The notes beneath the pieces were generated by a model. The model saw only the letters and a program-made list of their open reading frames with translations, was not told the origin of the DNA and did not search any database. DNA of 29,680 bases from Candidatus Sumerlaeota bacterium (GTDB lineage Bacteria; Sumerlaeota; Sumerlaeia; JADFCT01). Positions 5,121 to 23,504 of this stretch are shown one piece after another (position 1 is the first letter of the stretch; each line of letters opens with the position of its first letter). Where the stretch lies: NCBI GenBank assembly GCA_026398575.1, contig JAPLSP010000716.1, positions 1 to 29,680 of the forward strand. The letters run 5' to 3'. The translations under genes were made by a program, and so were the position numbers.

Positions 5121-5888
5121 TTACAGCGAATTTGCCCTAAGTAGTTGATGCAGCTTCTCTACGAAAGGAGCTGTCTCGACTGGCGTGATTTTTTGCCTGT
5201 CAGTCTTTGACCAATGGCTTGTTTCGATCACACCGATGACGTGTGCAGGGCGCTCTGAGAGCACGATAACTCGTTCACAAAGACGGACGGCTTCATGAAG
5301 ATCGTGAGTAACCATAAGCAGACTGATCCCATTCGATCCACAATTCTCCAGGATCAAATCCTGCAGCTTCATGCGGGCATAAACATCTAGCGCGCCAAAT
5401 GGCTCATCGAGAATCAACAGCTTCGGCTGAGTAATGAGCGCGCGGGCAAGTGCAACTCTTTGGCGCATTCCGCCTGACAGTTGAGCTGGGTAAAACTTCT
5501 CGAAACCTTGCAGCCCAAAGGCGTTGATCAGTTCAGCAACACTACTACAAATATCGGGCGCCGCTCGGTTACCACCTAAGGGAAAACGCACGTTTCCTTC
5601 TACGGTTCGCCATGGGAATAATGCTAAATGCTGAAATGCAAACGAAATGGGAATTGGATCATCGGACTCTTTTACATCCCATGAAACGGTTCCATTATCT
5701 GGAGTTTCTATGCCCGCTAGAATTCTCAAAAACGTCGTTTTCCCACAGCCAGAAGGACCGACAATCCCCACAAATTCCCCGTGTGCTACATCAAGTGTGA
5801 TAGGTTCGAGAACATGCAACCCTCCGGCACTTGCACGGAAGGTCTTTGTTATGGCGATCGCCTGCAATAATGGTTTCTTTTCGGTCAC
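5121..5888 (-). CDS. ABC transporter ATP-binding protein (SsuB/TauB type)
   Basis: This is the 255-residue nucleotide-binding subunit of an ABC importer of the nitrate/sulfonate/taurine class; it would energise the permease at the inner membrane. All core motifs are present: Walker A GPSGCGKTT (about 44-52), Q-loop FAFQ (83-86), signature LSGGMRQR (137-144), Walker B LLILDEP (157-163) and H-loop THD (194-196). I choose the GTG at 5888 because it overlaps the methyltransferase stop (GTGA) and has AAGGA about six bases upstream; an in-frame upstream start at 5939 would lie inside the previous gene. It is the last gene of the five-gene operon. Unusually, it is separated from its permease by two non-transporter genes. 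Confidence 0.92.
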   Translation of the reverse strand: MTEKKPLLQAIAITKTFRASAGGLHVLEPITLDVAHGEFVGIVGPSGCGKTTFLRILAGIETPDNGTVSWDVKESDDPIPISFAFQHLALFPWRTVEGNVRFPLGGNRAAPDICSSVAELINAFGLQGFEKFYPAQLSGGMRQRVALARALITQPKLLILDEPFGALDVYARMKLQDLILENCGSNGISLLMVTHDLHEAVRLCERVIVLSERPAHVIGVIETSHWSKTDRQKITPVETAPFVEKLHQLLRANSL

Positions 5889-6613
5889 GGAGATTCCTTT
5901 GTGTAAACCATGTAATGAACGCCGCCGAATCCGCAACAAGATGCCAATCTGCCAATTCTTGCCGTAGGAAACGCCAACTGAAGCTTGGGCTGAATATCGC
6001 TAAAACGATACCATCCAATCTTCTTGCGGTGAGCGACATCAACGGCTCTGTGTTGTCGCCATTCCTTGCTCGGATACTTCATACCCAGAATTGCTTTCCA
6101 GCCTCTTCGCCAGCCCAGAGTCTTCAAAACAGCAACCCATGTAATTAGCAGAGTGAGAGGAAAACCAAACAGGCTAAAGCATGCCGACTCACGGTCAATG
6201 TCTATGAGTATGAGTTTTCCACCTGACGGCAACAACGATTTATATTGAAGCAGAGAATCTATGGGGTCTCGAAAATGGTGTAAGGAGGTTCGGGCCAAAA
6301 TAGCATCAAAAATGCCTAGATGCTGTACCCAATTCATATCCTGAGCATCCCCCTCTAGAAACTGAGTATTCCCGCTATTGGATATGGAACCAGCTATTTC
6401 AACCGCCTTTTCTCGGATATCAATCCCAACTACAGATCCGAGTGGCACTACTTTGAGCATTTTCAAAACAAGTTTCCCATCACCGCAGCCGACATCTAGC
6501 ACTCTCCCCCCTGTACGAAGTTGACTTGCGATTAAGGGCTCCGTAAATGCATAGAACAGCTGGAGGCAGTCACCTAGGAAAAGCTCATCAGGAGCAAGGG
6601 GATCTTTTTTCAT
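5885..6613 (-). CDS. Class I SAM-dependent methyltransferase
   Basis: This 242-residue protein has the Rossmann-type methyltransferase fold. Motif I is VLDVGCGDGK (about 35-44), the acidic end of beta-2 is VVGIDIREKA (54-63), and ARTSLHHF carries the motif typical of Methyltransf_11/UbiE-like enzymes. A hydrophobic helix (SLFGFPLTLLITWVAVLKTL) follows the central strand, suggesting contact with a membrane or a hydrophobic substrate. The substrate is unknown. The ATG at 6613 overlaps the stop of the preceding gene by ATGA; the longer ORF starting at 6661 would run 51 bases into that gene and is less likely. The gene's own stop overlaps the ATPase GTG. It is the partner of the DAC-like gene in this operon, and whether it methylates a nucleotide product, a transported compound or a protein is open. 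Confidence 0.85.
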   Translation of the reverse strand: MKKDPLAPDELFLGDCLQLFYAFTEPLIASQLRTGGRVLDVGCGDGKLVLKMLKVVPLGSVVGIDIREKAVEIAGSISNSGNTQFLEGDAQDMNWVQHLGIFDAILARTSLHHFRDPIDSLLQYKSLLPSGGKLILIDIDRESACFSLFGFPLTLLITWVAVLKTLGWRRGWKAILGMKYPSKEWRQHRAVDVAHRKKIGWYRFSDIQPKLQLAFPTARIGRLASCCGFGGVHYMVYTKESP

Positions 6614-9315
6614 GAAATCACTTCGTCTGTCCATAGGAACCGTTGCCTGCATTTTGGGCATATTCGAATTTGATAGAGATTGACAGGTCCGTCTGCAGAG
6701 ATGCTACAGATAAGTGGACTACTATCGCCTATATTTTTTTTGCTCTCCAAATCGCAATCCCATAAACAACAAAGTTGAAATACGGAACGATGCTTCGCGC
6801 CCTTTGCGCCCATCTTGTTCTTCCACCCCTCCAGGTTCTCAAGAGCCTTTGCATGATGCGTTCCGTAAGTTTTCTCCGCCGCGCTAAGGTTTTTTATCCA
6901 TTGCTCTAAATAATCTTTCTGCAATCTTGTTGCCGTTAGTATAACGTCAGATTCGCCTAAACTTAAAGGCGCTGCGGCAACGTATCGCCTTGCGCATACC
7001 CAGTGCGTCTTGGATTTTGGATTCGAGGCTATATGAATCGCGCCATCCATCACTGCCAAACTTCTTAATACGCGTTGTTCTAATCCACTTAATCGTCTAT
7101 CTTGAGCCCACTCCATCTTAAAATCATCTGGAACCATGTCGCATAAAGATATATCCTTCCATGGCTCCCCTCCAATAATGAATAATGCGCCTTCGCCGGA
7201 GGTTTCGGAAATTGTACATATTGTAGATACAAGATCACGAACGCTAGCAGGAGCTCCTGATCCATCTTGAAAACTCATTGCCTTCCCTATCTCCGCAGTT
7301 AGTTTTCCGAGAGAGGATGATTCTTCAGTTCCAAATTCAAGGCCGAGCTTCCAGCGAGTCTTTTGATCGGGAGATGGATATTTTGTCCATGTCAGCAGTA
7401 GCTTTCCATTCACAAATATACGGAGGATACCGTCGCCTCCCGCAATTAAAGCAGCTGCGTTGCCTGTCTTCAGTTTGTCAAGTTTCCAAGTTAACCATCT
7501 AAGATTTCTAAATCTGTCGTCAACTACGATCTTGCCTTTGTCTCTCATCTCAGCTAAGTCTTCCTCAGGTGGAACTTTGACAATTACTATCTTGTTGACA
7601 GCAAGCTTGCCATAGAATTGATCAACATATGCACAGAATTCATCTTGCTGGAAAACCGAGTAATGTCCTCTGCAGGTAAGGCTAAACGCTTTCGCGATTT
7701 TATCAGGCTCATTGGAACTGATTCTTGATGTACCTACCGATTCATTCGAGACAACACGCTCAATATGCTTTAATACTTCAGGCGAACCATAAATAAATCG
7801 AAACGATGTGTCGCGCCCCTCATGCTTGTCTCCAGTGAGAATCTTACATGCATTTACTAAAGGCAAGAATTGCCTTTGAAATGGTTGTAGCGTACTAATT
7901 AGTTCCGATTCCTGATCTGTAGAAATCTCTTTATGGAGGTCTTCCAACGCATCTCGCAGCTCTTTTCCGAACAACTCCCGCTGGGCTATTTTGAGCGCTT
8001 CTCGCTGGCTTTTTTTAGATGTTCCTTGATTTTCTATATGGGTGTCATCATTTGCTGTTGCAGCAAATAGCCCCAAAACAATTGGCCTAATTCCATAAAG
8101 AAGTTGAGGATTAAAACCAATCTCTGAAGGAATTATGGTCCAACCAGATTTAAAACTTCCCGATACGTCAATAGCCGGAATTGTAATGACAGGTAAGGGT
8201 ATTTCATTTACAGTCGCCCAAGGGACCAAGCAAATGCTGCCTTGAATTAATGCCAAAAACTTCGATAATTTCTGTGCTGTTGATAAATCTTCTTCAGGAT
8301 AAAGCGTCATAATGTTGTGTGATAGATCTCCCGGACTTGCTAGCACTTCGGATTCAGCGCAGCTGCGAGCGGACCATAATCTTCGGGCTAAATCACGCGT
8401 TATCTGGTTAGTGGCCTCAGGTATCCAGTCCTTATGAATGCCATTGCCACCTTGACGCTCAACTGGAAAAGCTAGAGATGCATAACTGTTCCATGCTTGA
8501 TTGAAATAATCAATTGCGAGGTTCCCGTCCTTGTCATGAATAAGTGAGTACCATACTTTCTCGGAGACATCTATTGTAACTGATTCTATTTTGTCTCTAA
8601 TTTTGTATTCGGATATGGATAGAGCAGGAGTCCTTTTCTTAATATCATTTTTATGGTCCTTTGGCAAAAAAGCCAAACTAATAGTATCAGCTTTTCGCCA
8701 TTTCTTAGCGGAATCAAGTAACCGCTCATTAAGTGTATTGCCGCGCCCAAATATTGAGAAATAGAGATCAATGCTTTCTGTAAAAAATCTGCCTGCATGT
8801 TCCTCAAACACTGTTTCCGTAATAGCATCTTTATTCTCATCATTTAGAATTCTAAACGCGAGTTTAGTATCCATCCCATAAGATGATACCCTAGCGTTTG
8901 CAACACGTGAATCGCGAAAGTTCACTCCTACTGCTACGCATGGAGCATCGGCGTTAACAGGCAGGTTATTGGCATAAATACAATTATTGAAAAATCCTAT
9001 TGCTGAAGCTATTTCCCAGCCATCCTTCGTATATTTCACCATTTCTTCCTTAAATTGGGTGACCATTGCCGCAATTTGTATCTTTGTTTGTTCTGATTTT
9101 TCACTGCTCTGTAAACCATATTTCTCTCCATTATTCAACAATTGTGCAAGTAAGATGCGATGGATATAAACGACCCCTTGTTCATAAAGTCGCTGGTCAC
9201 GATGCTTTTGTAAATTAGCAACTTTGGTTAGAGCTACCGCAATTCCTTTCGCCTTAACAAGAAAATCATGGTATTGCGAAAAAAAGAAAGGATAATTCTG
9301 ATGGCTTTTCATCAT
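6610..9315 (-). CDS. Large protein with divergent DisA-like (DAC) domain
   Basis: This 901-residue soluble protein has a long N-terminal region (about 1-600) that I do not recognise. A segment with GGDGILRIFVNGK (about 626-638) follows, then a C-terminal region matching the diadenylate cyclase (DAC) fold in order: ALFIIGG strand (about 709-715), LSGLEQRVLRSLAVMDGA with the DGA motif at 757-759, a strand ending in AAAPLSL that resembles the LPLS of CdaA/DisA, GAKHRS at 839-844 in place of GTRHR, and SADG in place of SEETG. About 50 extra, charged, helical residues sit between DGA and GAKHRS. The chain ends with CPKC. Known DAC enzymes make cyclic di-AMP from ATP; conservation of DGA and the His-Arg pair suggests nucleotide binding, but activity is inference. 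The ATG at 9315 overlaps the permease stop (ATGA); the next codon is also ATG. It is followed by the methyltransferase, again by ATGA. Confidence 0.7.
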   Translation of the reverse strand: MMKSHQNYPFFFSQYHDFLVKAKGIAVALTKVANLQKHRDQRLYEQGVVYIHRILLAQLLNNGEKYGLQSSEKSEQTKIQIAAMVTQFKEEMVKYTKDGWEIASAIGFFNNCIYANNLPVNADAPCVAVGVNFRDSRVANARVSSYGMDTKLAFRILNDENKDAITETVFEEHAGRFFTESIDLYFSIFGRGNTLNERLLDSAKKWRKADTISLAFLPKDHKNDIKKRTPALSISEYKIRDKIESVTIDVSEKVWYSLIHDKDGNLAIDYFNQAWNSYASLAFPVERQGGNGIHKDWIPEATNQITRDLARRLWSARSCAESEVLASPGDLSHNIMTLYPEEDLSTAQKLSKFLALIQGSICLVPWATVNEIPLPVITIPAIDVSGSFKSGWTIIPSEIGFNPQLLYGIRPIVLGLFAATANDDTHIENQGTSKKSQREALKIAQRELFGKELRDALEDLHKEISTDQESELISTLQPFQRQFLPLVNACKILTGDKHEGRDTSFRFIYGSPEVLKHIERVVSNESVGTSRISSNEPDKIAKAFSLTCRGHYSVFQQDEFCAYVDQFYGKLAVNKIVIVKVPPEEDLAEMRDKGKIVVDDRFRNLRWLTWKLDKLKTGNAAALIAGGDGILRIFVNGKLLLTWTKYPSPDQKTRWKLGLEFGTEESSSLGKLTAEIGKAMSFQDGSGAPASVRDLVSTICTISETSGEGALFIIGGEPWKDISLCDMVPDDFKMEWAQDRRLSGLEQRVLRSLAVMDGAIHIASNPKSKTHWVCARRYVAAAPLSLGESDVILTATRLQKDYLEQWIKNLSAAEKTYGTHHAKALENLEGWKNKMGAKGAKHRSVFQLCCLWDCDLESKKNIGDSSPLICSISADGPVNLYQIRICPKCRQRFLWTDEVIS

Positions 9316-10100
9316 GCCGTCACCATGAATCCAACATTTTCTGAATCTCCGACCTTCCAACGTAATGCCCAAATTTCGAGCAGACTAACACCCAAATAGA
9401 GAATCACACCAATAGCCACAAGTACATGGATAGCCGCGAAGAGAAGCGCCGAATCAAAAGAAAGATCCCCTTGAATGATCAGGTATCCAAGGCCTTTGTC
9501 TGAGCCAACAAATTCGCCGACGATTGCTCCCACGACACTATAGATCGCGGCCATCTTAAGAGCGGCAAAAAAATACGGCAGGGCGAATGGCAACCGAATC
9601 TTGAAGATTGTGGACCATGGAGACATGCGCAGCGTGGCGGCGTAATCAAGGAATTCATTGTCCACAGCTCTCATTCCCCCCACCAGGTTAATATATATAG
9701 GAAAGAACGATATCAGGGCAGCAATCACAACCTTTGGCCCGAGGCCGTAGCCAAACCAGATCACGAAAAGCGGTGCGAGCGCGATCTTTGGAACCGATTG
9801 CATAATGACCATCAAGGGAGAAATCAGCGCTGCAAGTTTTTCTGATCGGATTGAGAGAACAGAAAAGATGAAGGCAAGAACCAGCCCGATCAATAATCCG
9901 CTTCCAAATGCCAGCGTCGTGATCCATGTGTGGTATAGGAATTGACCCGGCATCGATAGCAGTTTCTCAAGGACACTAAGCGGGTGAGGCAGGATGTAAG
10001 GAGCGGGATGAATGAGAATAACAGCGAGGAACCAAAATGCATAAATCAAGATCGCCCCTAAAAGGAATGGAAATATCGCCTTGAGCAGATATAGCTTCAT
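9312..10100 (-). CDS. ABC transporter permease (SsuC/TauC-like)
   Basis: This 262-residue inner-membrane permease of the BPD_transp_1 family has six hydrophobic segments. The cytoplasmic coupling (EAA) loop is visible around residues 165-190 (DYAATLRMSPWSTIFKIRLP), followed by PFALPYFFAALKMA. The start at 10100 is three bases after the stop of the substrate-binding protein, and the 3' end overlaps the DAC-like gene by ATGA, so the genes are probably co-translated. Family members pass sulfonates, taurine, nitrate, bicarbonate or thiamine precursors; nothing here fixes the substrate. Confidence 0.92.
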   Translation of the reverse strand: MKLYLLKAIFPFLLGAILIYAFWFLAVILIHPAPYILPHPLSVLEKLLSMPGQFLYHTWITTLAFGSGLLIGLVLAFIFSVLSIRSEKLAALISPLMVIMQSVPKIALAPLFVIWFGYGLGPKVVIAALISFFPIYINLVGGMRAVDNEFLDYAATLRMSPWSTIFKIRLPFALPYFFAALKMAAIYSVVGAIVGEFVGSDKGLGYLIIQGDLSFDSALLFAAIHVLVAIGVILYLGVSLLEIWALRWKVGDSENVGFMVTA

Positions 10101-10103
10101 GAT

Positions 10104-11108
10104 TCAGTTCATTCCCTGTTTGGGCAGGAACTTGTCTGTGAAAAACTCAGAAAGATTGACTTTGGCTGAGATGAGTTGCTGTGAGATCAGAAACTCCTGC
10201 GTTTTCTGCCACCCATCAAGAGACTGGGCGCCGATATGGCCTTGGGTTTCAAGGTTCTTTCTAAGAAACTCAGACAGTCTTTTCAATTTAAGACGCTCAA
10301 AATCTTTGTTCGCCGTTGGCACTGCTTCAAAAAACGCATTCAGCGATTCCGATTTGTCAGACAGCATTTCCGCAAACGCTTTGATGGCCGCCTTCAGAAA
10401 ACGCTGCGCTATGTCTGATTTCATGGTGTTCTTATTTCCAATAACGGCCATGCTGTAACAGTTCACTCCATAATCAGCGACAAATATTTCATTTACAGGA
10501 GTGCCAGCAAGTTCGCATTGGACTGGTTGAATATAGGTATATCCTCCAGAAGCATCTACGGAATCGGTCAGGATGTCATCAGCTTTTCCAGCGGTGGCCA
10601 CCACCTGGACTTTGCCTTTATCAATGCCAGCGAGCGAGCAGAAAGCCAAAAATTGATTATAGGTTGTACTTTTCATATACGCGCCGTATTTTCGTCCTTC
10701 GAGATCTTTAGGTTTGGTGATGTTTCGGTCCTTGCGAGAATAAACCACCGTCGGTGTTCGAGAATAGAGCACAGCAATAACCTGAACGGGCGCTCCCGCT
10801 GAAGCAGCGATAAGGGCCGTATCGCCACTGCATAGAGCATAGTCAATAGTTCCGTTGCCAACGAGCTTGGCGGAGGTAATTGATCCATCGCCAGGCTGAA
10901 TTTCGACATCGAGTCCCTCTTGCTTGAAATAGCCCTTTTTTTGAGCGAGGTAGATATAGGAATGCTCTGCCCCGACGGCCCAATCCAATCGAAAAGTCAA
11001 CTTTATTAATTGCTTCTTACTTTCGATTTTTTCCTTCTGACATGAAGAGGTCAATCCCATGAGCGAGAGAAAAAGCAGCATGAGTCCAGTAAATCTGAAG
11101 TTTTTCAT
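10104..11108 (-). CDS. NMT1/THI5-like substrate-binding lipoprotein
   Basis: This 334-residue periplasmic-face lipoprotein binds the ligand for the importer. The signal peptide MKNFRFTGLMLLFLSLMG ends in LTSSC, so Cys23 would be lipidated. The family signature follows: LTFRLDWAVGAEHSYIYLA (the usual phrase of NMT1/SsuA proteins), KKGYFKQEGLDVEI, then KPKDLEGRKYG. The family binds aliphatic sulfonates, nitrate, pyrimidine precursors of thiamine, riboflavin and similar small ligands. The ATG has AAAGGTGA about six bases upstream. It is the first gene of the operon, which makes it the likely entry point for ligand specificity. Confidence 0.92.
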   Translation of the reverse strand: MKNFRFTGLMLLFLSLMGLTSSCQKEKIESKKQLIKLTFRLDWAVGAEHSYIYLAQKKGYFKQEGLDVEIQPGDGSITSAKLVGNGTIDYALCSGDTALIAASAGAPVQVIAVLYSRTPTVVYSRKDRNITKPKDLEGRKYGAYMKSTTYNQFLAFCSLAGIDKGKVQVVATAGKADDILTDSVDASGGYTYIQPVQCELAGTPVNEIFVADYGVNCYSMAVIGNKNTMKSDIAQRFLKAAIKAFAEMLSDKSESLNAFFEAVPTANKDFERLKLKRLSEFLRKNLETQGHIGAQSLDGWQKTQEFLISQQLISAKVNLSEFFTDKFLPKQGMN

Positions 11109-11376: not shown

Positions 11377-11459
11377 TAATTTTCCTGTCTAATTTTCCTG
11401 TCTATATGGAGGGAGCTTGTAATTTCCGGGACATAATTTCCGGTAATTTCCGGGACAGG
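11377..11459 (+). repeat. 13/14-bp tandem repeats (taatttncc family)
   Basis: Two head-to-tail copies of taattttcctgtc (11377-11389, 11390-11402) are followed, after a 17-base gap, by taatttccgggaca (11420-11433), a shortened taatttccgg (11434-11443) and another full copy (11444-11457). The two units are related (taatttYcc + cctgtc/gggaca), and cctgtc and gacagg at the outer ends are complementary. Multiple short end repeats like these occur at the ends of some insertion sequences, so this may be an IS remnant, but no transposase gene accompanies it. Confidence 0.75.
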
Positions 11460-11464
11460 TTGCT

Positions 11465-12514
11465 TTATTCCTTCGAGATCGGAAGGTCGGGATTTAGCCT
11501 AGAAGTCTCGCCTTCCGCATTTTTCTTGCCCTCAAGGCGTTTGATCTCCCGGTCGAAGTCCGAGATGTATTCTGCATCCTGACGTTGGCGGTAAGCTTCG
11601 TATTCACCCTCGGCCTTAAGCCTCGCTTCCAGCGCGCTGACCTTGCCCTTGTCTTGGAGAATCGGATAGTTCGACAGTTCCAGGAAGCCATTCAGAAAAC
11701 CGACCCAATCTGACATCTTCATCAGGATGCCGCGCTCGGCCCGGTTCTCCGCCAGATCGAGGTAGGCTGAGACAATTCGGTTCAACTCCTTCACGTGCGC
11801 CTCGCTCAGGTAGTTCTTCGCTACCGTGACATCAGACTTCAGAATTTTGCCATGCGGCGCGCGCTTCCACGTCGTCAGGCCCATGTAAAGCTTGGTCGCA
11901 TCGGCGGAGGAATCAATCAGTTCCGCCGCCGTCTGTCCCGTGATTGCCCAGTGCAGTTTGTTCTGCACGGTGGCAAAGAACTCCTTCGTCAACGGCGCCT
12001 CCGCGCTGTAATCCACCGATAGCGCGTAGATGTCTGTGATCTTCTGGTAAAAGCGCCGCTCGCTGGCCCGGATTTCCCGGATGCGTTCCAGCAGTTCGTC
12101 GAAGTAATCCTTGCCGAAGACCTGCTTGCCCTGCTTCAGCCGTTCGTCATCCAGCACGAATCCCTTGATGATAAACTCCCGCAGCGTCTTCGTCGCCCAG
12201 ATGCGGAACTGCGTGGCCTGATAGCTATTCACCCGATAACCCACGGCGATGATGGCATCAAGATTGTAATAATTTGTTGAGTACGTCTTCCCGTCTTCGG
12301 CAGTATGTTCCAAAATGGAACACACTGAATCCTCGGCCAGCTCCCCCGATGAGAAAATATTCTGCAAATGCTTCGTGACAGCCGGGCGCTGAACGCCAAA
12401 CAACTCAGCCAGCGCCTTCTGCGTCAGCCAGACCGTCTCGTCTTTCAAGAAAACCTCGACCTTTACGGCGCCGTCGGGCGCGGTGTAGAGAAGAAACTGG
12501 TTTTCGTTGCTCAT
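11465..12514 (-). CDS. rhuM: RhuM family protein
   Basis: This 349-residue protein closely matches the RhuM family, first named from Salmonella pathogenicity island 3 and since found on many mobile and accessory regions. Function is not established. The N-terminus carries the helix-turn-helix-like phrase VWLTQKALAELFGVQRPAVT, then NYYNLDAIIAVGYRVNS and FRIWATKTLREFIIKGF, all family hallmarks of a KilA-N/Bro-like DNA-binding half. The C-terminal half is mostly helical with long charged helices. I choose the ATG at 12514 because of AGAGGTGAG just upstream; an ATG at 12535 precedes that site. Base composition is GC-richer than the ABC/DAC operon on its left. Its presence suggests an accessory or defence-type neighbourhood, though this gene alone does not prove it. 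Confidence 0.9.
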   Translation of the reverse strand: MSNENQFLLYTAPDGAVKVEVFLKDETVWLTQKALAELFGVQRPAVTKHLQNIFSSGELAEDSVCSILEHTAEDGKTYSTNYYNLDAIIAVGYRVNSYQATQFRIWATKTLREFIIKGFVLDDERLKQGKQVFGKDYFDELLERIREIRASERRFYQKITDIYALSVDYSAEAPLTKEFFATVQNKLHWAITGQTAAELIDSSADATKLYMGLTTWKRAPHGKILKSDVTVAKNYLSEAHVKELNRIVSAYLDLAENRAERGILMKMSDWVGFLNGFLELSNYPILQDKGKVSALEARLKAEGEYEAYRQRQDAEYISDFDREIKRLEGKKNAEGETSRLNPDLPISKE

Positions 12515-12551
12515 GGTCTCACCTCTCTCGTGCAAAATCCATGGCCTTATT

Positions 12552-12625
12552 CTTAGTGCTCTGAGTCGTAAATACGGCGCCGAGTTTTTGCCAAAGATGA
12601 AAGTAATGCGATCGGAAGCGGCGCC
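12552..12625 (+). repeat. Intergenic repeat, copy 1 of a ~75-bp family
   Basis: This 74-base segment aligns almost without gaps to 19306-19380. Shared blocks are ctctgagtc, taaat, a T-rich centre, gatgaa, aatgc and tcggaagcggcgcc. It lies between the RhuM start and the hairpin at 12620-12726, with which its GGCGCC end overlaps. Confidence 0.75.
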
Positions 12626-12726
12626 AGCTTTTGGAGTAAGGCTGCTTGCTGCCTTCTTCTTGGCGATTCAATGGCCTTGGCGCTAAAAAGAAGGCAGCAA
12701 GCAGCCTTACTCCAAAAGCTGGCGCC
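12620..12726. repeat. Perfect 39-bp inverted repeat, 29-nt loop
   Basis: The arms 12620-12658 and 12688-12726 are exact reverse complements (39 of 39), beginning ggcgccagcttttggag and separated by 29 bases. The right arm ends 7 bases from the stop codon of the sugar isomerase-like gene, so the hairpin may end transcription of that gene. The perfect arms also suggest a recent palindromic insertion of MITE type. Confidence 0.9.
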
Positions 12727-13801: not shown

Positions 13802-15064
13802 CTATCCTTGCGCGTAGTACACAGCGGAATTTATGGGATATTTTAATTTTTGCGGCTTCATCTTGCCTTCCGCCGGTGAGGCGAAGCCACTTAAATTCTC
13901 CACGCCCAGCGCATCGCCCCAGACATCGGCCCGTAGCAGGTTGATCGCTTGCGCCGTGGTCAGGCGCTGGTCCGGCGCTAGCTTTCGCCACTTGGGCGCC
14001 GGAAGCCGTTCCCGACCCAACGCGCCGGCTTTCATGCTGCGATGCGCGGCCAGCAGCAAGGTGGCGTAGGCCGCCGCCAGGAACGCGGGGACCGTTTCGA
14101 CGGCCTTTGGCGTCCGGACTTGCGCTTGGCCGGCGCCGATCAGAGTTTTCTCATCGCGAAAGTTCATTTCGATTTCCCATCGCCATAAAAAGTATTGCAC
14201 GATCCATTGAGGATCGAGGTCCGGTTTGGTGCAGATCACATACGCCGCATCGCGGTACAGAACCGGCGATTTTTTTCTCAGTCGGTAGCCGACAGGTTTG
14301 ATGATGACCAGGCATAAGTTCCGTTTGCCGCCGGCGGTATTCCAGCGCACCGGCGCGACCACCTTGATCTTCATGGAACGGATTTGCCCGGCCGCCCACA
14401 CCTCGACCTCCCGCCACGGCACGGCCTCGTCGCGGCGCATCTGTTCGGGGGTGGCCAGCCGCGTCCCATAGCAGCGTGTGCGTCCCCGCCCGGCCTGCGC
14501 GTCGGGCAGCGCGAAAAGTTTGGCGTCTTTGCGGATGCGGCCCACGAAGACCGTGCGGGGCGGCAGGCCTTTCAGGACGGTGGAATTCGTATAGCCGCCG
14601 TCGCCCGAGAGGATCAACTCGCGTCCCCGGCCATCGTCATCCTCATCAAGCCCTTGGCGCAGGTCCTGCACGGCGGCGGCGGCGCGCACGGATAGACATT
14701 CTTGCTTGCGTTTTTCGGCATAGGCTTTCCATATCTCGGCCGCCGCGTTCTTGCGCGGCTTCGGGGGCGTGGGGCAATGCCGCCAATCAATGGGAATAGC
14801 GCGCGCCGAACACGGACCGGCGGCCGCCGACGGGAGCGCGGCGGAGATTTGCAGATGCCGCTGACTCCAAGCGAGATTGGTCTGGAATTTCGGCCCCAGC
14901 GGATCGCGCCGCCAGCCTGCGCCATGCACCTTCCTGCCCGCTTTGCGCAGCAGCGTGTCATCCATCATCGCTGCAACCGCCATCCCATGGGCGCGACGGT
15001 GGGAACGCTGCTGCGCAAAAGCCGAACGCATGGGCGCCCACAACGCGTTGAACTGGGCGATCAA
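13802..15064 (-). CDS. DDE transposase (frameshifted from upstream ORF)
   Basis: This reading frame encodes up to 420 residues of an IS4/IS701-type transposase that cuts and joins the element's ends. The catalytic triad is likely Asp in MDDTLLRK (about 33-40), Asp in LSGDGGYTN (about 148-156) and Glu in the WRWEIEMNFRDEKTLIG block (about 293-309), the IS4-family Y/W-R-E-K signature. The frame opens only with a TTG at 15064, inside what looks like conserved protein. The preceding ORF (from 15263) would continue into this one if one base of the A9 tract at 15076-15084 were skipped. The stop codon lies at the inner edge of the left inverted repeat. The element is therefore either expressed by frameshifting or slippage, or inactive, or the A-run was miscounted in assembly. 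Confidence 0.85.
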   Translation of the reverse strand: MIAQFNALWAPMRSAFAQQRSHRRAHGMAVAAMMDDTLLRKAGRKVHGAGWRRDPLGPKFQTNLAWSQRHLQISAALPSAAAGPCSARAIPIDWRHCPTPPKPRKNAAAEIWKAYAEKRKQECLSVRAAAAVQDLRQGLDEDDDGRGRELILSGDGGYTNSTVLKGLPPRTVFVGRIRKDAKLFALPDAQAGRGRTRCYGTRLATPEQMRRDEAVPWREVEVWAAGQIRSMKIKVVAPVRWNTAGGKRNLCLVIIKPVGYRLRKKSPVLYRDAAYVICTKPDLDPQWIVQYFLWRWEIEMNFRDEKTLIGAGQAQVRTPKAVETVPAFLAAAYATLLLAAHRSMKAGALGRERLPAPKWRKLAPDQRLTTAQAINLLRADVWGDALGVENLSGFASPAEGKMKPQKLKYPINSAVYYAQG

Positions 15065-15507: not shown

Positions 15508-16512
15508 ATGTTTCATTCCCGTCCGGCAGCTTTTGCGCTTCGAGCGGCGCCTTTCGCGATATCGCTGGCGCTGGTGGCGTGGGCGGTTTATCTGTGCCGC
15601 GATTCGCTGGGACAGATGCCGCAGGCCTTGCGCGCCACGCATTTGGGATGGAGCGTCCTTGGGTTGCTCAGCATCTGGGCGGGGCTGGCGGTCGTGTCGT
15701 GGAGGCTGCAATTGGTTTTTGCGGCGGTGGGTATTGGCGGCGGACTGTGGCGATATACGCTTTACACGCTGGCGGGCTTGTTCGCCAGCAACTTCGTCCC
15801 TTCGACGGGCGGCGCCGATCTGGTCAAGGCGTTCTATATCGCTTATGACCGCAAGGCTTCGCGCCAGATATGCGTCGTGGCGAGTTTCGCCGACCGGGCG
15901 ATCGGCATGGTGATCATGCTGTTGCTGGCCGCGCTGACGATGCGTCTGACACTTCCCGATTCCAACTATACGCGGATCGCCACGAATGCGGCGCTGGCGA
16001 TAGTCGCGGCGGCAATCCTGATCGGCGCGATCGAGTCGCTATTGCCCTCCGGCAGTCCATGGCGCACAAAGACGATCCGCTTGTTCGAGCGGTTCCGCCT
16101 CCATCGCACAGCGGAGGCGGCGCAAATTCTGTTGCGTTCGCCGCGGATGCTCATCGCGACGGCGATCCTGTCGGTGGTTGTCTGTTTCTTTTTTTCGCTG
16201 GGCGCCTGGTGCCTGGGGCGAGGCGCGGCGATGCAGGCGCCCCCGCTGGTTTGGATCGCGCTCGTTAACGCGGTCTTCATCGCCATGCTGCTGCCGTCAG
16301 TGGGCGGACTGGGCGTGCGCGAAGTGCTGTTCATTCTTTTCCTGAAGCCCTACGCCCCGCGCGAACAGGCATTGATGCTGGCGCTGCTCTATTTTGCATT
16401 GTTTTTGCTGACCAGTCTCCTGGCCGGCGCGATTTTATCCTTTCACGGATGGAGGCGTTTTCCGGTATTCTCGGAAAGCGAGAGCGAAAACAGCCCTGGG
16501 AAGACGCTCTGA
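15508..16512 (+). CDS. Lysylphosphatidylglycerol-synthase-TM/flippase-like membrane protein
   Basis: This 334-residue polytopic inner-membrane protein of the LPG_synthase_TM (UPF0104/AglD-like) family has seven to eight hydrophobic segments. Family hallmarks are visible: SNFVPSTGGADLVKAFY (about 96-112) and LLPSVGGLGVREVLF (about 258-272). There is no catalytic lysyltransferase domain, so it corresponds to the stand-alone membrane part, which in other organisms is linked to flipping or handling of lipid-linked substrates. Upstream lies the insertion sequence and no clear ribosome-binding site is visible, so the start is uncertain. The next gene begins 110 bases downstream, after a hairpin repeat, and is also a membrane protein; a joint role in surface glycan or lipid modification is plausible but not shown. 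Confidence 0.87.
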   Translation: MFHSRPAAFALRAAPFAISLALVAWAVYLCRDSLGQMPQALRATHLGWSVLGLLSIWAGLAVVSWRLQLVFAAVGIGGGLWRYTLYTLAGLFASNFVPSTGGADLVKAFYIAYDRKASRQICVVASFADRAIGMVIMLLLAALTMRLTLPDSNYTRIATNAALAIVAAAILIGAIESLLPSGSPWRTKTIRLFERFRLHRTAEAAQILLRSPRMLIATAILSVVVCFFFSLGAWCLGRGAAMQAPPLVWIALVNAVFIAMLLPSVGGLGVREVLFILFLKPYAPREQALMLALLYFALFLLTSLLAGAILSFHGWRRFPVFSESESENSPGKTL

Positions 16513-16513
16513 T

Positions 16514-16613
16514 TTCAAACTAAAGTTTGAACTCAAACACAAACTGAAGTTTGAACTCCAGACACAAACTAAAGTTTGAACTCCAAACGAAACTCCAAAC
16601 GAAACTCCAAACG
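16514..16613 (+). repeat. Hairpin plus 12-bp tandem repeat (family A, locus 1)
   Basis: Three small hairpins with 2-base loops, 16514-16531 (8-bp stem), 16540-16553 and 16565-16578 (6-bp stems caaact/agtttg), are each followed by an aactcnna-type tail. The last is followed by tandem 12-mers, gaaactccaaac, up to 16613. A related array with different stem bases occurs at 28798-28872. The array begins immediately after the stop codon of the flippase-like gene. Confidence 0.85.
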
Positions 16614-16622
16614 GAAAGCATC

Positions 16623-19259
16623 ATGACACCGGAAGAAGCGCAATCTCTCAAGGAACAACAGTCGGAATTCGTCGCCGCCGGGCTTGGCTTGATGGCCACG
16701 ATCTGCCTGCTGTTTGCTGTGCTTTATGCATTGCACTGGTGGGTCAAAGACACTCCGGCAGACCCGCAAGAGATTGCGCGCATGTTTATCTGGAATTACT
16801 GGCATTTTAAGTCGGAGCCGCTAGAGAGGCTGCGCTACCTCTCGGCATTGATCTTGTCGCCTCTCTTTTTGTGGATGTTCTTCGCGATATTTCGCCGGTT
16901 CTTGCGCAAGCCTTTGGAAATCTCTTTCGTTCGTCACTCCATCTATGGCGCTTTGCTTGTGTTGCTTTTGATCGCGGCATCCTGGTTCCTTTATTTTGTC
17001 CTCAAAACGGTTCCATACTATATCAACGACAGCCTTCCGTGGCTTCATCCATTTTATTCCCTGCTATTCTTTTTGGGCGTCATTCAGCTGATCCTTATCT
17101 CGCGCAATCGGTCGGCAAACCGGATTGCCGGCTGGCTGGTCTGGCTTGCATATGTTTATCTGCTTGTCATCATCATCAAAACTTGCGTGTTCAATGAATA
17201 TTATATCTTTGTAGGAACCGGGGCTTTTGGGGCGCACTTCAATCCCGTTTTTCATTCTGTGGTTCAGGTGTGTCTTGGCAAAGCCGTCCTGGTGAACCTC
17301 CCATCGCAATATGGCCTTTATCCGCATTTCCTCGAGCCGCTTTTCAGGATCATCGGGCTTTCTGTTTACAGCTTCACGGTTACGATGGGGCTGCTTCTGG
17401 CGCTGTCGTTTCTATGCGTCCTGCTTGTCTTGCGCGACAACATCCGAAACAAAAGCCTCGAACTCATTGCGTTTGTCGCATTCATCTATATCGGCTTCTT
17501 TCTCGCGCGCATCCGCTTCCTCGCGCCGGAATCATACTTTCAGGTTTTCCCGATCCGCTTTTTGTTCCCCATGGCGATGACCTGGCTCGCGTGGATGTGG
17601 ATCAAGACTCGGTCCCGGCGCTATTATGCGCTCGGTTTTGCGGCAAGCGCGCTGGCGCCGTATTGGAATCTGGATACCGGACTTATTGTCTCGGTGGCCT
17701 GGTTGCTGCTTTTGCTTTATCATGAAATTCTCACGCCGCGCCCGCAATGGTTCAGGTCCTGCCTGCGGCATTTGGCGGTCTGGATTGGCGCGCATCTGTG
17801 CGCTCTAATTGCGCTCCATCTTTATTTTCTCGTCCGCTATGGCGCCGCGCCTGACTTGAAGGCTTTTGCCTCCTACCAGATGATTTTTTATCGGTCCGGC
17901 TTCTATATGCTGCCCATGCCGCTGGTTCATCCGTGGATGATCGTGGCGTTGATTTATCTGCTCGGCCTGTTGTTTGCCGCCGTGCGGCTGGTTCAGCGAA
18001 TCCCCTCCCCCTCGGCGGAATTGGTCTTTTTCATCTCCATCCTGGGCGCAGGAGTTTTCAGCTATTATCAAGGCCGCAGTCATGAAAACTTGCTGGCTTG
18101 CAGCTGGTATCCGGCGCCGCTGCTGGTGATTCTCTTTGCGGACCGCCTGTTGCGCTATTGGCAGGCGCGCTGGATCGCGCCGCATATCGCCGTCCTGTCG
18201 CTGGTCTTCCTTTATCTTCTGTCTTCCGCCGCCAGCACGCTTGCGTTCAATAGCGCGCGCGTCAACGCGATTCTTCAAAGCCGGCGCCAGGCATTGAGCA
18301 AGAAGCCGCCGACTTCGGTCACCCGCGATATGGAGTTTGTCCGCAAGCATGCGATCCCCGGGGAGGAAGCGCTGGTTCTATCGAAAATGTCCTCGGTATA
18401 TCATCTGGCGGGACGCATGGCTTCGCCGGTCAAAATTCCCAGCGTATCGGAATTGATCCTGAAAAAAGACTTTGAAACGTTGATGCAGTTCCTCCACGAG
18501 AATCACAAGTATCGCGTCTTTCTGGACAAGACTTCTCTCATCGAGGCGCCTCAATACAGCCAGCAGATATATCGGACACTTGCGGAAAAATATGATACTA
18601 TTGAAAAGAGCTCGGACGGCGATCTTTTTATTCTGCAGCCGCGCGACGCGGCCTCAACCCGTTCCGCGCCGGCCACGCCGCTGATTCCGCCCAAGACGGC
18701 TTCGGTGTTCGCCCATTTTCTTGTTTCCAATGGCTTCGCCATCTGCGATCTGAATGGCGCTTTTATCAATCTGCTCCCCGATACGATGCGGCCTGTTTTG
18801 CCCGGTCCGGCTCTGACCGTCGAGGTCGTCGTAAGACCGGCCGCCCGCCAGCCGCCGTACAGCCATATCATCGGCACGCATATATCCAGCAGATGCGAAG
18901 GATTTGCGATCCAGCAGGATGGCGCCAGCACAAATAGCTATGTCTTATTCTATGGCGATGGAACGACGCGCTGGCTGCGGCCACTGGCATTCAAGCTGGC
19001 GGCGAAGGAATGGAACTATCTAGCCGTCGTCATGGACGGCGCCACGGCCAAAGCATACATCAATGGCGCGCTCGTTCAATCCGGCGCTATGCCAACCCGG
19101 ATAGCGCCCAGTTCGACGCCGCTTTTTATCGGCGAATGGCAGGGCGGCGGGCGTGTGTTTATGGGGGATATTGCGGAGGCACGCGTCATGACAAGCGCGC
19201 TGAGCGACACCCAAATCGCCGCCACTTGGAATCAAATGCGCGGCAGGCTTCGTCCTTGA
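16623..19259 (+). CDS. Polytopic GT-C-like membrane protein with C-terminal LamG domain
   Basis: The first about 560 residues of this 878-residue protein hold a dozen or more hydrophobic segments in the pattern of GT-C glycosyltransferases, which use polyprenyl-phosphate sugars outside the membrane; I do not see a clear family signature, so this is tentative. A soluble segment follows (about 570-690). Residues about 700-875 form a concanavalin/LamG-like jelly roll (ALTVEVVVRPA, EGFAIQQDG, WNYLAVVMDG, AYINGALV, FIGEWQGGGR). The same domain ends the convergent neighbour. I choose the ATG at 16623, preceded by GGAAAG; an upstream ATG at 16551 lies inside the hairpin repeat and would add only repeat-encoded residues. 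The LamG tail may bind the glycan being built. The flippase-like gene just upstream could form an operon with it. Confidence 0.8.
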   Translation: MTPEEAQSLKEQQSEFVAAGLGLMATICLLFAVLYALHWWVKDTPADPQEIARMFIWNYWHFKSEPLERLRYLSALILSPLFLWMFFAIFRRFLRKPLEISFVRHSIYGALLVLLLIAASWFLYFVLKTVPYYINDSLPWLHPFYSLLFFLGVIQLILISRNRSANRIAGWLVWLAYVYLLVIIIKTCVFNEYYIFVGTGAFGAHFNPVFHSVVQVCLGKAVLVNLPSQYGLYPHFLEPLFRIIGLSVYSFTVTMGLLLALSFLCVLLVLRDNIRNKSLELIAFVAFIYIGFFLARIRFLAPESYFQVFPIRFLFPMAMTWLAWMWIKTRSRRYYALGFAASALAPYWNLDTGLIVSVAWLLLLLYHEILTPRPQWFRSCLRHLAVWIGAHLCALIALHLYFLVRYGAAPDLKAFASYQMIFYRSGFYMLPMPLVHPWMIVALIYLLGLLFAAVRLVQRIPSPSAELVFFISILGAGVFSYYQGRSHENLLACSWYPAPLLVILFADRLLRYWQARWIAPHIAVLSLVFLYLLSSAASTLAFNSARVNAILQSRRQALSKKPPTSVTRDMEFVRKHAIPGEEALVLSKMSSVYHLAGRMASPVKIPSVSELILKKDFETLMQFLHENHKYRVFLDKTSLIEAPQYSQQIYRTLAEKYDTIEKSSDGDLFILQPRDAASTRSAPATPLIPPKTASVFAHFLVSNGFAICDLNGAFINLLPDTMRPVLPGPALTVEVVVRPAARQPPYSHIIGTHISSRCEGFAIQQDGASTNSYVLFYGDGTTRWLRPLAFKLAAKEWNYLAVVMDGATAKAYINGALVQSGAMPTRIAPSSTPLFIGEWQGGGRVFMGDIAEARVMTSALSDTQIAATWNQMRGRLRP

Positions 19260-19305
19260 GCGGGCAATTCAAGTTTTTGTTTGAGCCCGTCGTTCAACCT
19301 CCATG

Positions 19306-19380
19306 CTAAGTTCTCTGAGTCATAAATTCAGTGACATATTTTTCACTGGGGATGAATGCAATGCAGTCGGAAGCGGCGCC
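19306..19380 (+). repeat. Intergenic repeat, copy 2 of a ~75-bp family
   Basis: Aligns along its whole length with 12552-12625, with one single-base gap; the last 14 bases, tcggaagcggcgcc, are identical. It lies between two convergent genes, 47 bases after one stop and 18 bases before the other. Beyond GGCGCC the two loci diverge: copy 1 runs into a perfect 39-bp inverted repeat, copy 2 does not. Confidence 0.75.
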
Positions 19381-19398
19381 GCTCCTATCCGCATGAAT

Positions 19399-21600
19399 CT
19401 ACTCTTCGTCGTCTTTCAATAAATCCTTCACCGCCAGCCAATTCTTAGCGATTTCATCCGGCGCCGGGCACACCGATGAAATCCTGACTTCACGAATCCA
19501 TCCATTATACATCCGGCCGCCTTGATACCAATCTCCAATCCACAGCGGCCGCCGGCTGTTTTCCATGCCCAACGTTTCGATTCGTTCCGCCGCTTGTACG
19601 CCATTAATATAGACTCGAATCGTCTTATCCCGAACCGTCACCGCCAGATAGCTCCATTGTTCCTCCGGCAACCGGAAGACAACACCCGGCGCCCAGCCTT
19701 TTCCATCACCATACATAAATTTATACTGATTGGTCTTGCCGCCGTCCTGCTGGATGACAAAGCCCTGGCATTCGCTGTTCAACCCCGGATGATTGCCAAG
19801 AATATCGCTGTAGGTCCGCTGTTGATCGGCGGGCTTCAGCAGCGCTTCCACGGCAAATGCGCCGGGCAGCGTGAGCGGGCTTTTGGTGACGCCTTTGGTA
19901 ATGGGCGCGCGCATCCGGATGTGCAGCATCTCATCGGCGCGCTTGGGCAGAAGCAATCCGGAAGCCTCCTGGCGCCGTTCATATATTCCGCAAGATACCC
20001 AGAGGATTGCGATCAATACCACCGCCGTTGCTGGCGCCAAGACCATCATGCGCCGGTTTTCCGGACGCAAGAGCCAGCGCGCGCAAATCTGCCAATAAGG
20101 GCGGAGTTTATCCCAGGCCAACGCGCCTGCTCCCGCGAAGGCCGGTCCCGCGAAAAGGCTCAACGCCGGAAATCCGGCCAGCGAATACCGCGATTCGACA
20201 TGGTTGATCGAATGAAAAGCGGTGATGTAAAGCGGAAAAAGCCAGACGCTCATAAAGGCAGCCAGTCGCCGTCGCGTCAATAGCGGCAAAGCAAGCAGCC
20301 ATCCGATCAGATATGGAAAAACCCAACGCCCCTTCGGGTCCGGATCGGCCCACATCTGCTTGCTGTGGTTCCACCAAAGCATCGGCACGCGCTCGATGCA
20401 AATCTGCACATATCGCCAGGGATGGCGCCGGATGCGCTCAAGGATCAGCGCCTTCAGTTCACTGTTGGCCGCCTGCAATTCCTTATAGTGGTTCGCGCGA
20501 AAATGAAATATCTGCTTGTCGAAGAGTTCCTGCACTTTCTTCATTTCATCCGGGCTGTTGAAAAATTCCTGCGGAAGGACTTTGGCAGGCCAGTTCTGCG
20601 GCGTCAGATAGGTGCCGATCATCAGCGTGCGCTGGAAGCTCCCCGTGCTAACGGGAACAAGGCCGCCGGTCACGAGATAGTTGCGGAACGTCCACGGGAC
20701 AATCACGCAGCCGATCATCACTAGAAATCCCGCCGCCCTCACGAGCCGCCCGCGCCACGGCCCTTCAAGAGCGAACATCAGCAAAGCAGCCATCACAAAG
20801 GGATAGAGCATGAACACCGGACGCGTTAAAATCGCCAGCGCCGCTGTCGCGCCCGACAGCGCCAGCCATCGGAAACGTCCCCTGGCGCATCCCGCGAGAT
20901 AAAAGCACAAGGCCACGCTCATCAAAAACGAAGCCTGCCAGTCGGTCAACAGGGCGCGCGCATAATGGATGTTATAGGGTGAAAGCGCGATCATCAGTCC
21001 GGCCAGAAACGCTCCGGAGCGGCGGCGGAACAGAAACCATGCCCCGAGAAAAACAAACACCGCCGAAAACGCGTCCACACACCCCTGCACAACGCGAACG
21101 AGATTCATCTCTTCGATGTGGAAAGTGAAAAGCAGCCATAGGAAGAAGGGGTAGCCCGGCGCCACGACGAAACAGGGCACGTAAGGCGGCGCGCTGTTCA
21201 TGCTGTAAACGCCATGATTGCGCAGATTCATCCCCAGCGGAAAATAGGCGTTCCAGCTGTCGCTGAAAGAGCCCCAGCCGCCTTGAATGGTTTCCGGTCG
21301 TGCGCCGATATATCCGAGCCGCGCCGTCACCGCCACCAGGAGGATAACGAGCAGCGGAACGATCAATCGCCGCGCTTCGTCGAGCCAGGATGAGCCGGGG
21401 ATGCCGCTGTCACTAATGCGGTCGCCTGAGTTCGTAGTGGGAGACGGCGCCTGCGGCGCATCACGGACGGTGGATTCGGATGATTCTGCCGGTTCGGCCT
21501 GACCTGTCTCTTCCATGGGCATGTGATCCATGGGTGGCAATTTATCCAGAACCGCACGGGCGGTCCATCTGAAAAGACAGGCTGCACTGACAAAGCGCAA
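19399..21600 (-). CDS. GT39-type glycosyltransferase with C-terminal LamG domain
   Basis: This ORF of up to 733 residues starts with an acidic, Pro/Ser-rich cytoplasmic segment, then a first membrane helix (RLIVPLLVILLVAVTARLG, about 84-102). The extracytoplasmic loop GGWGSFSDSWNAYFPLG contains the acidic residue expected for catalysis in the PMT/ArnT (GT39/GT83) fold. About ten more helices follow, with ARALLTDWQASFL and LAILTRPVF, both typical of this superfamily. Such enzymes transfer a sugar from a polyprenyl-phosphate donor on the outer face. Residues from about 590 on form a LamG-like domain similar in phrase order to that of the convergent gene (QGFVIQQDGGKTN, WSYLAVTV, VYINGV, PLWIGDW). 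The start is uncertain: Met codons at 21600, 21531 and 21522 are all possible. The acceptor is unknown. Confidence 0.87.
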   Translation of the reverse strand: MRFVSAACLFRWTARAVLDKLPPMDHMPMEETGQAEPAESSESTVRDAPQAPSPTTNSGDRISDSGIPGSSWLDEARRLIVPLLVILLVAVTARLGYIGARPETIQGGWGSFSDSWNAYFPLGMNLRNHGVYSMNSAPPYVPCFVVAPGYPFFLWLLFTFHIEEMNLVRVVQGCVDAFSAVFVFLGAWFLFRRRSGAFLAGLMIALSPYNIHYARALLTDWQASFLMSVALCFYLAGCARGRFRWLALSGATAALAILTRPVFMLYPFVMAALLMFALEGPWRGRLVRAAGFLVMIGCVIVPWTFRNYLVTGGLVPVSTGSFQRTLMIGTYLTPQNWPAKVLPQEFFNSPDEMKKVQELFDKQIFHFRANHYKELQAANSELKALILERIRRHPWRYVQICIERVPMLWWNHSKQMWADPDPKGRWVFPYLIGWLLALPLLTRRRLAAFMSVWLFPLYITAFHSINHVESRYSLAGFPALSLFAGPAFAGAGALAWDKLRPYWQICARWLLRPENRRMMVLAPATAVVLIAILWVSCGIYERRQEASGLLLPKRADEMLHIRMRAPITKGVTKSPLTLPGAFAVEALLKPADQQRTYSDILGNHPGLNSECQGFVIQQDGGKTNQYKFMYGDGKGWAPGVVFRLPEEQWSYLAVTVRDKTIRVYINGVQAAERIETLGMENSRRPLWIGDWYQGGRMYNGWIREVRISSVCPAPDEIAKNWLAVKDLLKDDEE

Positions 21601-21705
21601 ATTGGATTCTTGAGAGTTCGCGTTGCCGCTCTGGCTGCAAAAAGCTTTTATTCCCGCAACAGAGACATATAGGCATCAAGGCCGCCGAGGCAAAGCGGGC
21701 GCAGA

Positions 21706-23175: not shown

Positions 23176-23504
23176 GATTATTGCTCCTTTCATGGATTGA
23201 GGGAAACAATGCAAGGCTACAGACAGCAATGGAGCATGAATTTGCGCAAACGATCTTCTTTGGGATCTCCTTCGTCGAACGCTTTCCAGGAAAAACACGC
23301 ATTTGCAGGACGAGGATATCTTATTATGCCAAATGGCGTCGCTCAAGCATTATTTTCAGAGATTCTGGCCAAGCAGACGCCTTGAGGACAAATATCGGAA
23401 TTAGGTATTTTTCGTTCCTTCCATAGGCAAAGCATAAAAACGCTGGCGCCGGAGCCCGTCCGCAATACATGATTTGAGAATCAGCTGATTGCTGGGGGGA
23501 AGGC
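23176..23504. other. Divergent intergenic region
   Basis: This 329-base spacer lies between the divergent SUMF-fold and GHL10-like genes, so it should carry both promoters. I see no convincing -35/-10 pair. A perfect 12-base palindrome, aatcagctgatt, lies at 23479-23490, just upstream of the gggggaagg ribosome-binding site of the plus-strand gene, and could be an operator. Confidence 0.5.

What the first reader, a model, noticed from the sequence alone, without database searches (positions are those of the whole stretch)
5121..11108. Putative nucleotide-messenger synthase and methyltransferase embedded in an ABC importer operon
The operon reads substrate-binding lipoprotein, permease, DAC-like protein, methyltransferase, ATPase. 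The DAC-like, methyltransferase and ATPase genes each begin within the stop codon of the gene before (ATGA at 9315, ATGA at 6613, GTGA at 5888), so all five products are probably made together. A DAC-methyltransferase pair between the permease and its ATPase is not a standard SsuABC/ThiXYZ layout. One reading is a ligand-sensing importer wired to a cyclic-dinucleotide (or related) signal. Another is synthesis or modification of the transported compound. A third is a conflict/defence device that uses the importer as effector or sensor.
Basis: partly seen in the sequence, partly recalled or inferred. Interest (0 to 1): 0.88.

Follow-up and report, generated by a model that had tools for sequence, protein, structure and literature searches.

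The report
Mobile importer operon with DAC enzyme
Five overlapping genes build a nutrient-type membrane importer together with an enzyme resembling those that make the signal molecule cyclic di-AMP and with a methyltransferase; the set looks like a mobile cassette, one copy sits among phage-defence genes inside a phage genome, and what it does is not yet known.

The parts
10104..11108 (-). Substrate-binding protein, NMT1/THI5-like (closest solved relatives 4nmy and the pyrimidine-binding protein 3ix1)
   Evidence: Pfam PF09084 9e-48; PDB profile matches 4nmy 1.4e-33, 3ix1 9.2e-22; clade of 19 further relatives at 56-71% identity, then one at 45%, then 56 at 26-32%
9312..10100 (-). ABC permease, single transmembrane subunit
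   Evidence: Pfam PF00528 8e-30; 73% identical to the L001 permease
6610..9315 (-). 901-aa protein: GAF-like region, motif-less DAC fold, C-terminal DAC domain
   Evidence: no Pfam/NCBIfam/PADLOC hit; 7 homologues at 31-52% identity; models and structure comparison; profile-profile
8026..9315 (-). N-terminal region, residues 1-430, GAF-like fold
7336..7908 (-). Middle domain, residues 470-660: DAC fold without DGA or RHR (pseudo-DAC)
6613..7338 (-). C-terminal DAC domain, residues 660-901
7039..7047 (-). DGA motif (residues 757-759)
   Evidence: invariant in 8 of 8 aligned sequences
6787..6795 (-). KHR, counterpart of the RHR motif (residues 841-843)
   Evidence: RHR in 7 of 8 aligned sequences, KHR in the window
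5885..6613 (-). Class I SAM-dependent methyltransferase, 242 aa
   Evidence: Pfam PF13847 6e-18; 63% identical to the L001 copy
5121..5888 (-). ABC importer ATPase, 255 aa, no extra regulatory domain found
   Evidence: Pfam PF00005 1.5e-32 over residues 27-164; no CBS domain among the families listed; 65% identical to the L001 copy

Best explanation
A mobile five-gene module couples an ABC importer of the NMT1/THI5 type to a nucleotide-messenger enzyme. The 901-aa protein has a GAF-like sensor region, a DAC-fold domain that lost the catalytic motifs, and a C-terminal DAC domain that keeps them. It most likely joins ATP into a cyclic di-AMP-type (or related) nucleotide when triggered. Since no separate nuclease, pore or lipase effector was recognised in the operon, the importer, possibly with the methyltransferase, is the most likely output or the source of the trigger. 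Given its carriage among defence genes in a phage, the most likely use is conflict with other mobile elements. Shown here: gene content, conservation, DAC-like C-terminus, phage and defence-gene context of one copy. Inferred: catalysis, product, sensing, gating and biological role.
For: C-terminal DAC: profile-profile E 2.7e-6, and 3.8e-8 without the insert, with reversed and 8 column-shuffled controls at 1.2% or less; DAC structures fill the top 20 of 50 rows; DGA 8 of 8 and RHR 7 of 8, both motifs being essential in CdaS (PMC4568413, passages). Pseudo-DAC. Linkage: L001; contig-length pairs for 5 of 7 homologues, L001's locus among them; DAC and SBP distances agree, r 0.785, 2 of 720 permutations as high. 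Mobility: operon GC 42-49% and GC3 0.36-0.52 against GC3 about 0.72 in two genes on its SBP side; in the phage contig operon genes have GC 50-54% against 61-64% in the two end pieces. Conflict context: in the phage contig Vsr, histidine kinase and receiver-like genes, Dcm and a cold-shock/Shedu gene precede the operon, the portal follows. In the window the neighbour is a RhuM gene that PADLOC lists as candidate PDC-S05. Precedents: a DAC is needed for defence in system DS-2 (PMC13092281, passages), and c-di-AMP binds ABC importer ATPases BusAA and OpuCA (PMC10243994, passages).
Against: No activity or defence has been measured. Pfam DAC does not match at E up to 10 and Foldseek alone found no significant match. 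The window copy has KHR instead of RHR. The ATPase lacks the CBS domain through which c-di-AMP acts on BusA and OpuC. Of 19 cassette-type SBP relatives, 7 have longest contigs of 17-260 kb and 7 have contigs of 6.2 kb or less whose lengths match no DAC homologue, so the importer may exist without the enzyme. The defence context rests on one phage contig. Low GC is not unique to the operon: 16501-17500 and 22501-23500 are also at 48-49%. The N-terminal and middle-domain assignments rest on an eight-sequence model of mean pLDDT 69.5.
Confidence: 0.45

Rival explanations
1. Nutritional cargo: the cassette imports and processes a thiamine-precursor-like or other heterocyclic compound. The methyltransferase and the DAC-like enzyme act on that compound, and phages carry it to benefit the lysogen.
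For: Closest solved SBP relatives are 4nmy, ThiY 3ix1 and THI5/THI13; the SBP is more conserved (56-79% among six pairs) than the DAC-like protein (28-47%), so ligand choice appears to be under strong constraint.
Against: No Rfam riboswitch in window or L001, no thiamine genes among the window and L001-contig proteins scanned. A sensor plus pseudo-DAC plus DAC protein is not a vitamin enzyme known to me, and the phage copy stands among restriction- and Shedu-type genes.
Confidence: 0.22
2. Homeostatic signalling: the DAC makes ordinary c-di-AMP that tunes this importer, as c-di-AMP tunes osmolyte importers, with no conflict role.
For: c-di-AMP control of ABC importers BusA and OpuC (PMC10243994, passages).
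Against: The ATPase is 255 aa with no CBS domain found; the best solved SBP relatives are not osmolyte binders; the cassette was not found by pattern scans of the genome collection and looks horizontally acquired.
Confidence: 0.12
3. The 901-aa protein is a non-catalytic nucleotide-binding regulator or scaffold derived from DACs.
For: Middle domain has no catalytic motifs; window copy has KHR for RHR; too divergent for a Pfam DAC match.
Against: DGA is invariant and RHR kept in 7 of 8 aligned sequences, and the C-terminal SISADGPV stretch is nearly invariant.
Confidence: 0.13
4. The genes are neighbours by accident.
Against: Same order and same overlap at the permease/DAC junction in a phage contig with 38-73% identity; four further contig-length pairs; agreeing distance matrices.
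Confidence: 0.03

Closest known systems
DAC (diadenylate cyclase) enzymes: DisA, CdaA, CdaS, CdaM/DacM, DacZ
   Different: No Pfam DAC match; insert of about 47 residues before RHR; preceded by a motif-less DAC fold and a GAF-like region; KHR in the window copy; sits in an importer operon
DS-2, a CBASS-type locus with phospholipase, cGAS-like enzyme and DAC (PMC13092281, passages read)
   Same: A DAC whose predicted catalytic residues are needed for defence
   Different: No CD-NTase and no phospholipase recognised here; an ABC importer and methyltransferase instead
ThiXYZ / SsuABC / TauABC importers (NMT1-type SBP)
   Same: SBP, permease and ATPase families
   Different: Two extra genes between permease and ATPase; SBP clade set apart from the other listed hits by a drop from 45% to 32% identity; scores far below the curated cut-offs of the Ssu, Tau and Sao models
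c-di-AMP-controlled ABC importers BusA and OpuC
   Same: A DAC product acting on an ABC importer is the shared idea
   Different: Those carry CBS domains on the ATPase (PMC10243994, passages) and their DAC is encoded elsewhere (recalled); neither holds here

Membership tests
DAC domain family | DAC fold | tested here: met
DAC domain family | Profile similarity to known DACs | tested here: met
   hhalign to 14 DACs 88.6% (E 2.7e-6), 95.0% (3.8e-8) with the insert left out, full-length alignment 74.6%; controls for the first two 1.2% or less
DAC domain family | Match to Pfam PF02457 above its cut-off | tested here: not met
   no match at E up to 10 in 8 of 8 aligned sequences; none in the L001 record, while 12 of 14 control genomes ring
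DAC domain family | DGA motif | tested here: met
   8 of 8
DAC domain family | RHR motif | tested here: inconclusive
   RHR in 7 of 8 aligned sequences, KHR in the window copy
DAC domain family | Synthesis of c-di-AMP from ATP | not testable with these tools
   needs enzyme assay
CBASS | CD-NTase (cGAS/DncV-like) in the operon | tested here: not met
   no PADLOC or Pfam match of that kind among the five proteins; a very divergent one cannot be excluded
CBASS | Dedicated effector (nuclease, phospholipase, pore) | tested here: not met
   none recognised among the five proteins by Pfam/PADLOC
ThiXYZ thiamine-precursor importer | SBP of the THI5/ThiY branch | tested here: met
   profile matches 4nmy, 3ix1, THI5/THI13 above taurine-binding protein
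ThiXYZ thiamine-precursor importer | TPP riboswitch or thiamine genes nearby | tested here: not met
   no Rfam match of that kind in window or L001; none among window proteins scanned
ThiXYZ thiamine-precursor importer | Binding of pyrimidine or thiamine | not testable with these tools
   needs binding assay
GAF domain | GAF fold in the N-terminal region | tested here: inconclusive

The most novel reading that the evidence does not exclude
The pairing of a motif-keeping DAC with a motif-less DAC in one chain makes a two-substrate synthase: the active half holds ATP, the altered half holds a different acceptor, such as the heterocycle brought in by the dedicated importer. The product, an adenylylated and perhaps methylated small molecule, would be a new kind of messenger or an antiviral antimetabolite, spread by phages as a defence cassette that turns a nutrient importer into an immune component.
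Probability: 0.15. Interest if true: 0.93.

Novelty: new variant of a known kind. Interest (0 to 1): 0.73.

Why it matters
DACs were shown only recently to matter in phage defence (DS-2, PMC13092281, passages). A DAC made as part of an importer operon, with a degenerate second DAC fold and a methyltransferase, would extend nucleotide immune or stress signalling to membrane transport, and would offer a defined system in which importer, trigger and messenger are encoded together. The DAC-like protein is missed by Pfam, NCBIfam and PADLOC models, so annotation pipelines built on them would overlook it.

Tried and rejected
Searches that gave nothing: tblastn of the 901-aa protein in plasmids and phages; genome contigs with the DAC alignment (44 pattern matches, none confirmed) and with the SBP alignment (35, none). 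Seven scans of viral contigs gave only one cassette contig: the single-sequence DAC scan gave nothing; some searches gave that contig, and one search also 15 methyltransferase loci at 23-36% identity in their best segment, which were not followed. The profile search with A1 returned only 3 proteins, fewer than the single-sequence search, because candidates were capped; it says nothing about more distant relatives. Foldseek found no significant match for the full model in PDB or BFVD, nor in PDB for the C-terminal model. PDB sequence search with the single protein gave nothing; with the alignment only a chance-level row, 9nyi, E 1.8. In one search the rows below rank 20 are unrelated. tblastn of a typed CdaA-like query found 22 phage records with ordinary CdaA-like matches; these were not followed.

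Considered and rejected: CBASS membership (no CD-NTase or effector recognised); TPP-riboswitch-controlled importer; the two Rfam miRNA rows (below gathering score, on a long inverted repeat). PADLOC does match the ATPase (mad3 1.4e-32, mad8, AriA) and the methyltransferase (mad2 1.5e-16); I read these as general ABC-ATPase and methyltransferase likeness, not as a MADS system, and did not test it further. Homology of the middle domain to DACs by sequence alone was not supported (hhalign 1.2%; a global run gave nothing useful); it rests on fold.

Weak points kept: contig-length pairing is indirect, since the contigs could not be fetched; it links 5 of the 7 other DAC homologues, while P0002 (contig 4,469) and P0004 (37,213) have no SBP partner of the same length. 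Of the 19 SBP relatives 5 pair, 7 on contigs of at least 17 kb and 7 on contigs of 6.2 kb or less do not. The distance-matrix test used 6 pairs. The hhalign DAC set was 14 sequences that I chose for diversity (6 of the 20 records, 8 of the 33), read as frame-1 fragments and trimmed at stops or at the gene end. One control ran higher than the rest: a 74-residue C-terminal piece gave 2.7% against reversed DACs and 48.5% against DACs.

Papers: PMC13092281, PMC4568413, PMC8646023 and PMC10243994 were seen as passages only; Galperin 2023 and Burroughs 2015 are not held and are known to me only from citation or recall; all other papers were seen as search listings. I saw no paper describing this cassette in the listings; this covers that library and those terms only.

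Full report
Observation. The five genes are present as described on the minus strand at 5121-11108. Junctions read directly from the sequence: permease/DAC-like ATGA at 9315, DAC-like/methyltransferase ATGA at 6613, methyltransferase/ATPase GTGA at 5888; SBP and permease are 3 bases apart. Pfam gives NMT1 for the SBP (9e-48), BPD_transp_1 for the permease (8e-30), Methyltransf_31 for the methyltransferase (6e-18), ABC_tran for the ATPase (1.5e-32) and nothing for the 901-aa protein. NCBIfam and PADLOC also give nothing for it, and none of its 8 aligned family members matches Pfam DAC at E up to 10.

The cassette travels as a unit. In IMG/VR one contig carries a homologue, and its locus L001 has SBP, permease, DAC-like, methyltransferase and ATPase in the same order, with the same ATGA junction between permease and DAC-like gene and an ATPase start overlapping the methyltransferase stop. 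Identities to the window are 62, 73, about 38-41, 63 and 65%. The SBP search (E up to 1e-20) listed 77 proteins: the window's own, 19 at 56-71%, one at 45%, and 56 at 26-32%. The exact length of the longest contig links SBP and DAC-like homologues in 5 of 7 cases: 6,341; 142,678 (the L001 locus: P0005 is contained in the L001 protein); 25,570; 13,298; 10,913. Two homologues (P0002, P0004) have no such partner. Of the 19 SBP relatives, 7 with longest contigs of 17-260 kb and 7 with contigs of 6.2 kb or less have no DAC-like partner of equal length. Since the DAC search was limited in candidates and these proteins diverge fast, this may be missed detection or real absence; I could not fetch the contigs. 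Over the six pairs (window included) DAC identity is 28-47% and SBP identity 56-79%; the two distance matrices agree with r 0.785, reached by 2 of 720 permutations. The DAC-like gene thus evolves faster than the importer it is linked to.

Mobility and context. The operon has GC 42-49% and GC3 0.36-0.52, while the two genes on its SBP side have GC3 about 0.72 and the window averages 54.5% GC; two other stretches of the window are nearly as low, 48-49%. Next to it is a RhuM-type gene, which PADLOC lists as candidate defence PDC-S05, and an IS701-type transposase lies at 13802-15064 (below its cut-off). In the phage contig the order is terminase large subunit (5438-7300), Vsr endonuclease, histidine kinase and receiver-like gene, Dcm-type methylase, further small genes, a cold-shock/Shedu-type gene, the five-gene operon (17590-23584), then portal, head maturation protease, scaffold and major head protein, tape measure and tail genes. 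There the operon genes have GC 50-54%, the two end pieces of the contig 61-64%. So one copy is cargo inside a phage structural region together with restriction- and Shedu-type genes. The same protein lies on a 142,678-base contig, which would fit an integrated prophage (inference). The family was not found by pattern scans in the collection of 84,980 species genomes (contigs under 3,000 bases are not held there), nor in plasmid or phage records; it probably belongs to lineages poorly covered so far. The window's host is unknown.

How it probably works. Inference: the GAF-like region and perhaps the pseudo-DAC sense a trigger, and the DAC half then makes a nucleotide product. No separate effector was recognised, so the importer or the methyltransferase must be part of the response or supply the trigger. 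The SBP belongs to the branch of thiamine-precursor and thiamine-type binders by best solved relatives (4nmy, 3ix1, THI5/THI13; that 4nmy was solved with thiamin is recalled), so an aromatic heterocycle is a reasonable guess for its ligand. There are precedents for each half: a DAC needed for phage defence in DS-2 (PMC13092281, passages), and c-di-AMP acting on ABC importer ATPases through CBS domains (PMC10243994, passages). But no CBS domain was found in this ATPase, so a direct copy of that mechanism is not expected.

Membership. The protein has a DAC-like C-terminal domain by fold, by profile comparison and by DGA, with RHR altered in the window copy; it is not a Pfam DAC member by score, and activity is untested. 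The operon is not a CBASS by gene content. The importer is of the NMT1 type but is not shown to be ThiXYZ: no riboswitch or thiamine genes were seen.

Verdict. New variant of a known kind (DAC-based nucleotide signalling), with an unusual importer partnership and an unusual tandem DAC architecture.

Noticed in passing
window 12620-12726: Near-perfect inverted repeat, 46-base arms 96% complementary with 15 bases between them, between the RhuM gene and a sugar-isomerase-like gene; Rfam's sub-threshold miRNA rows fall on it. Possibly a MITE-like element or terminator.
   Followed up: no
window 11465-12535: RhuM-type gene directly upstream of the operon, strong match to PADLOC candidate PDC-S05; may be part of the same mobile region although its GC3 (0.725) is like that of the next gene.
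   Followed up: partly
window 13802-15064: IS701-type transposase near the operon (NF049999 match below cut-off).
   Followed up: no
window 11419-11457: Two exact 15-base copies of GTAATTTCCGGGACA, starts 24 bases apart, between RhuM and the operon.
   Followed up: no
L001:6022-6996: Protein with an N-terminal cold-shock domain and a C-terminal Shedu SduA domain, in the phage cargo region.
   Followed up: partly
L001:21-3311: Histidine-kinase-like ATPase gene followed by a receiver-like gene and a Dcm-type methylase, between terminase and portal genes of a phage; no PADLOC match for the first two.
   Followed up: partly
window 6787-6795: The window copy alone of 8 aligned sequences has KHR instead of RHR in the DAC motif.
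   Followed up: partly
window 5121-6613: PADLOC matches ATPase and methyltransferase to MADS components mad3 and mad2; read as general family likeness.
   Followed up: no
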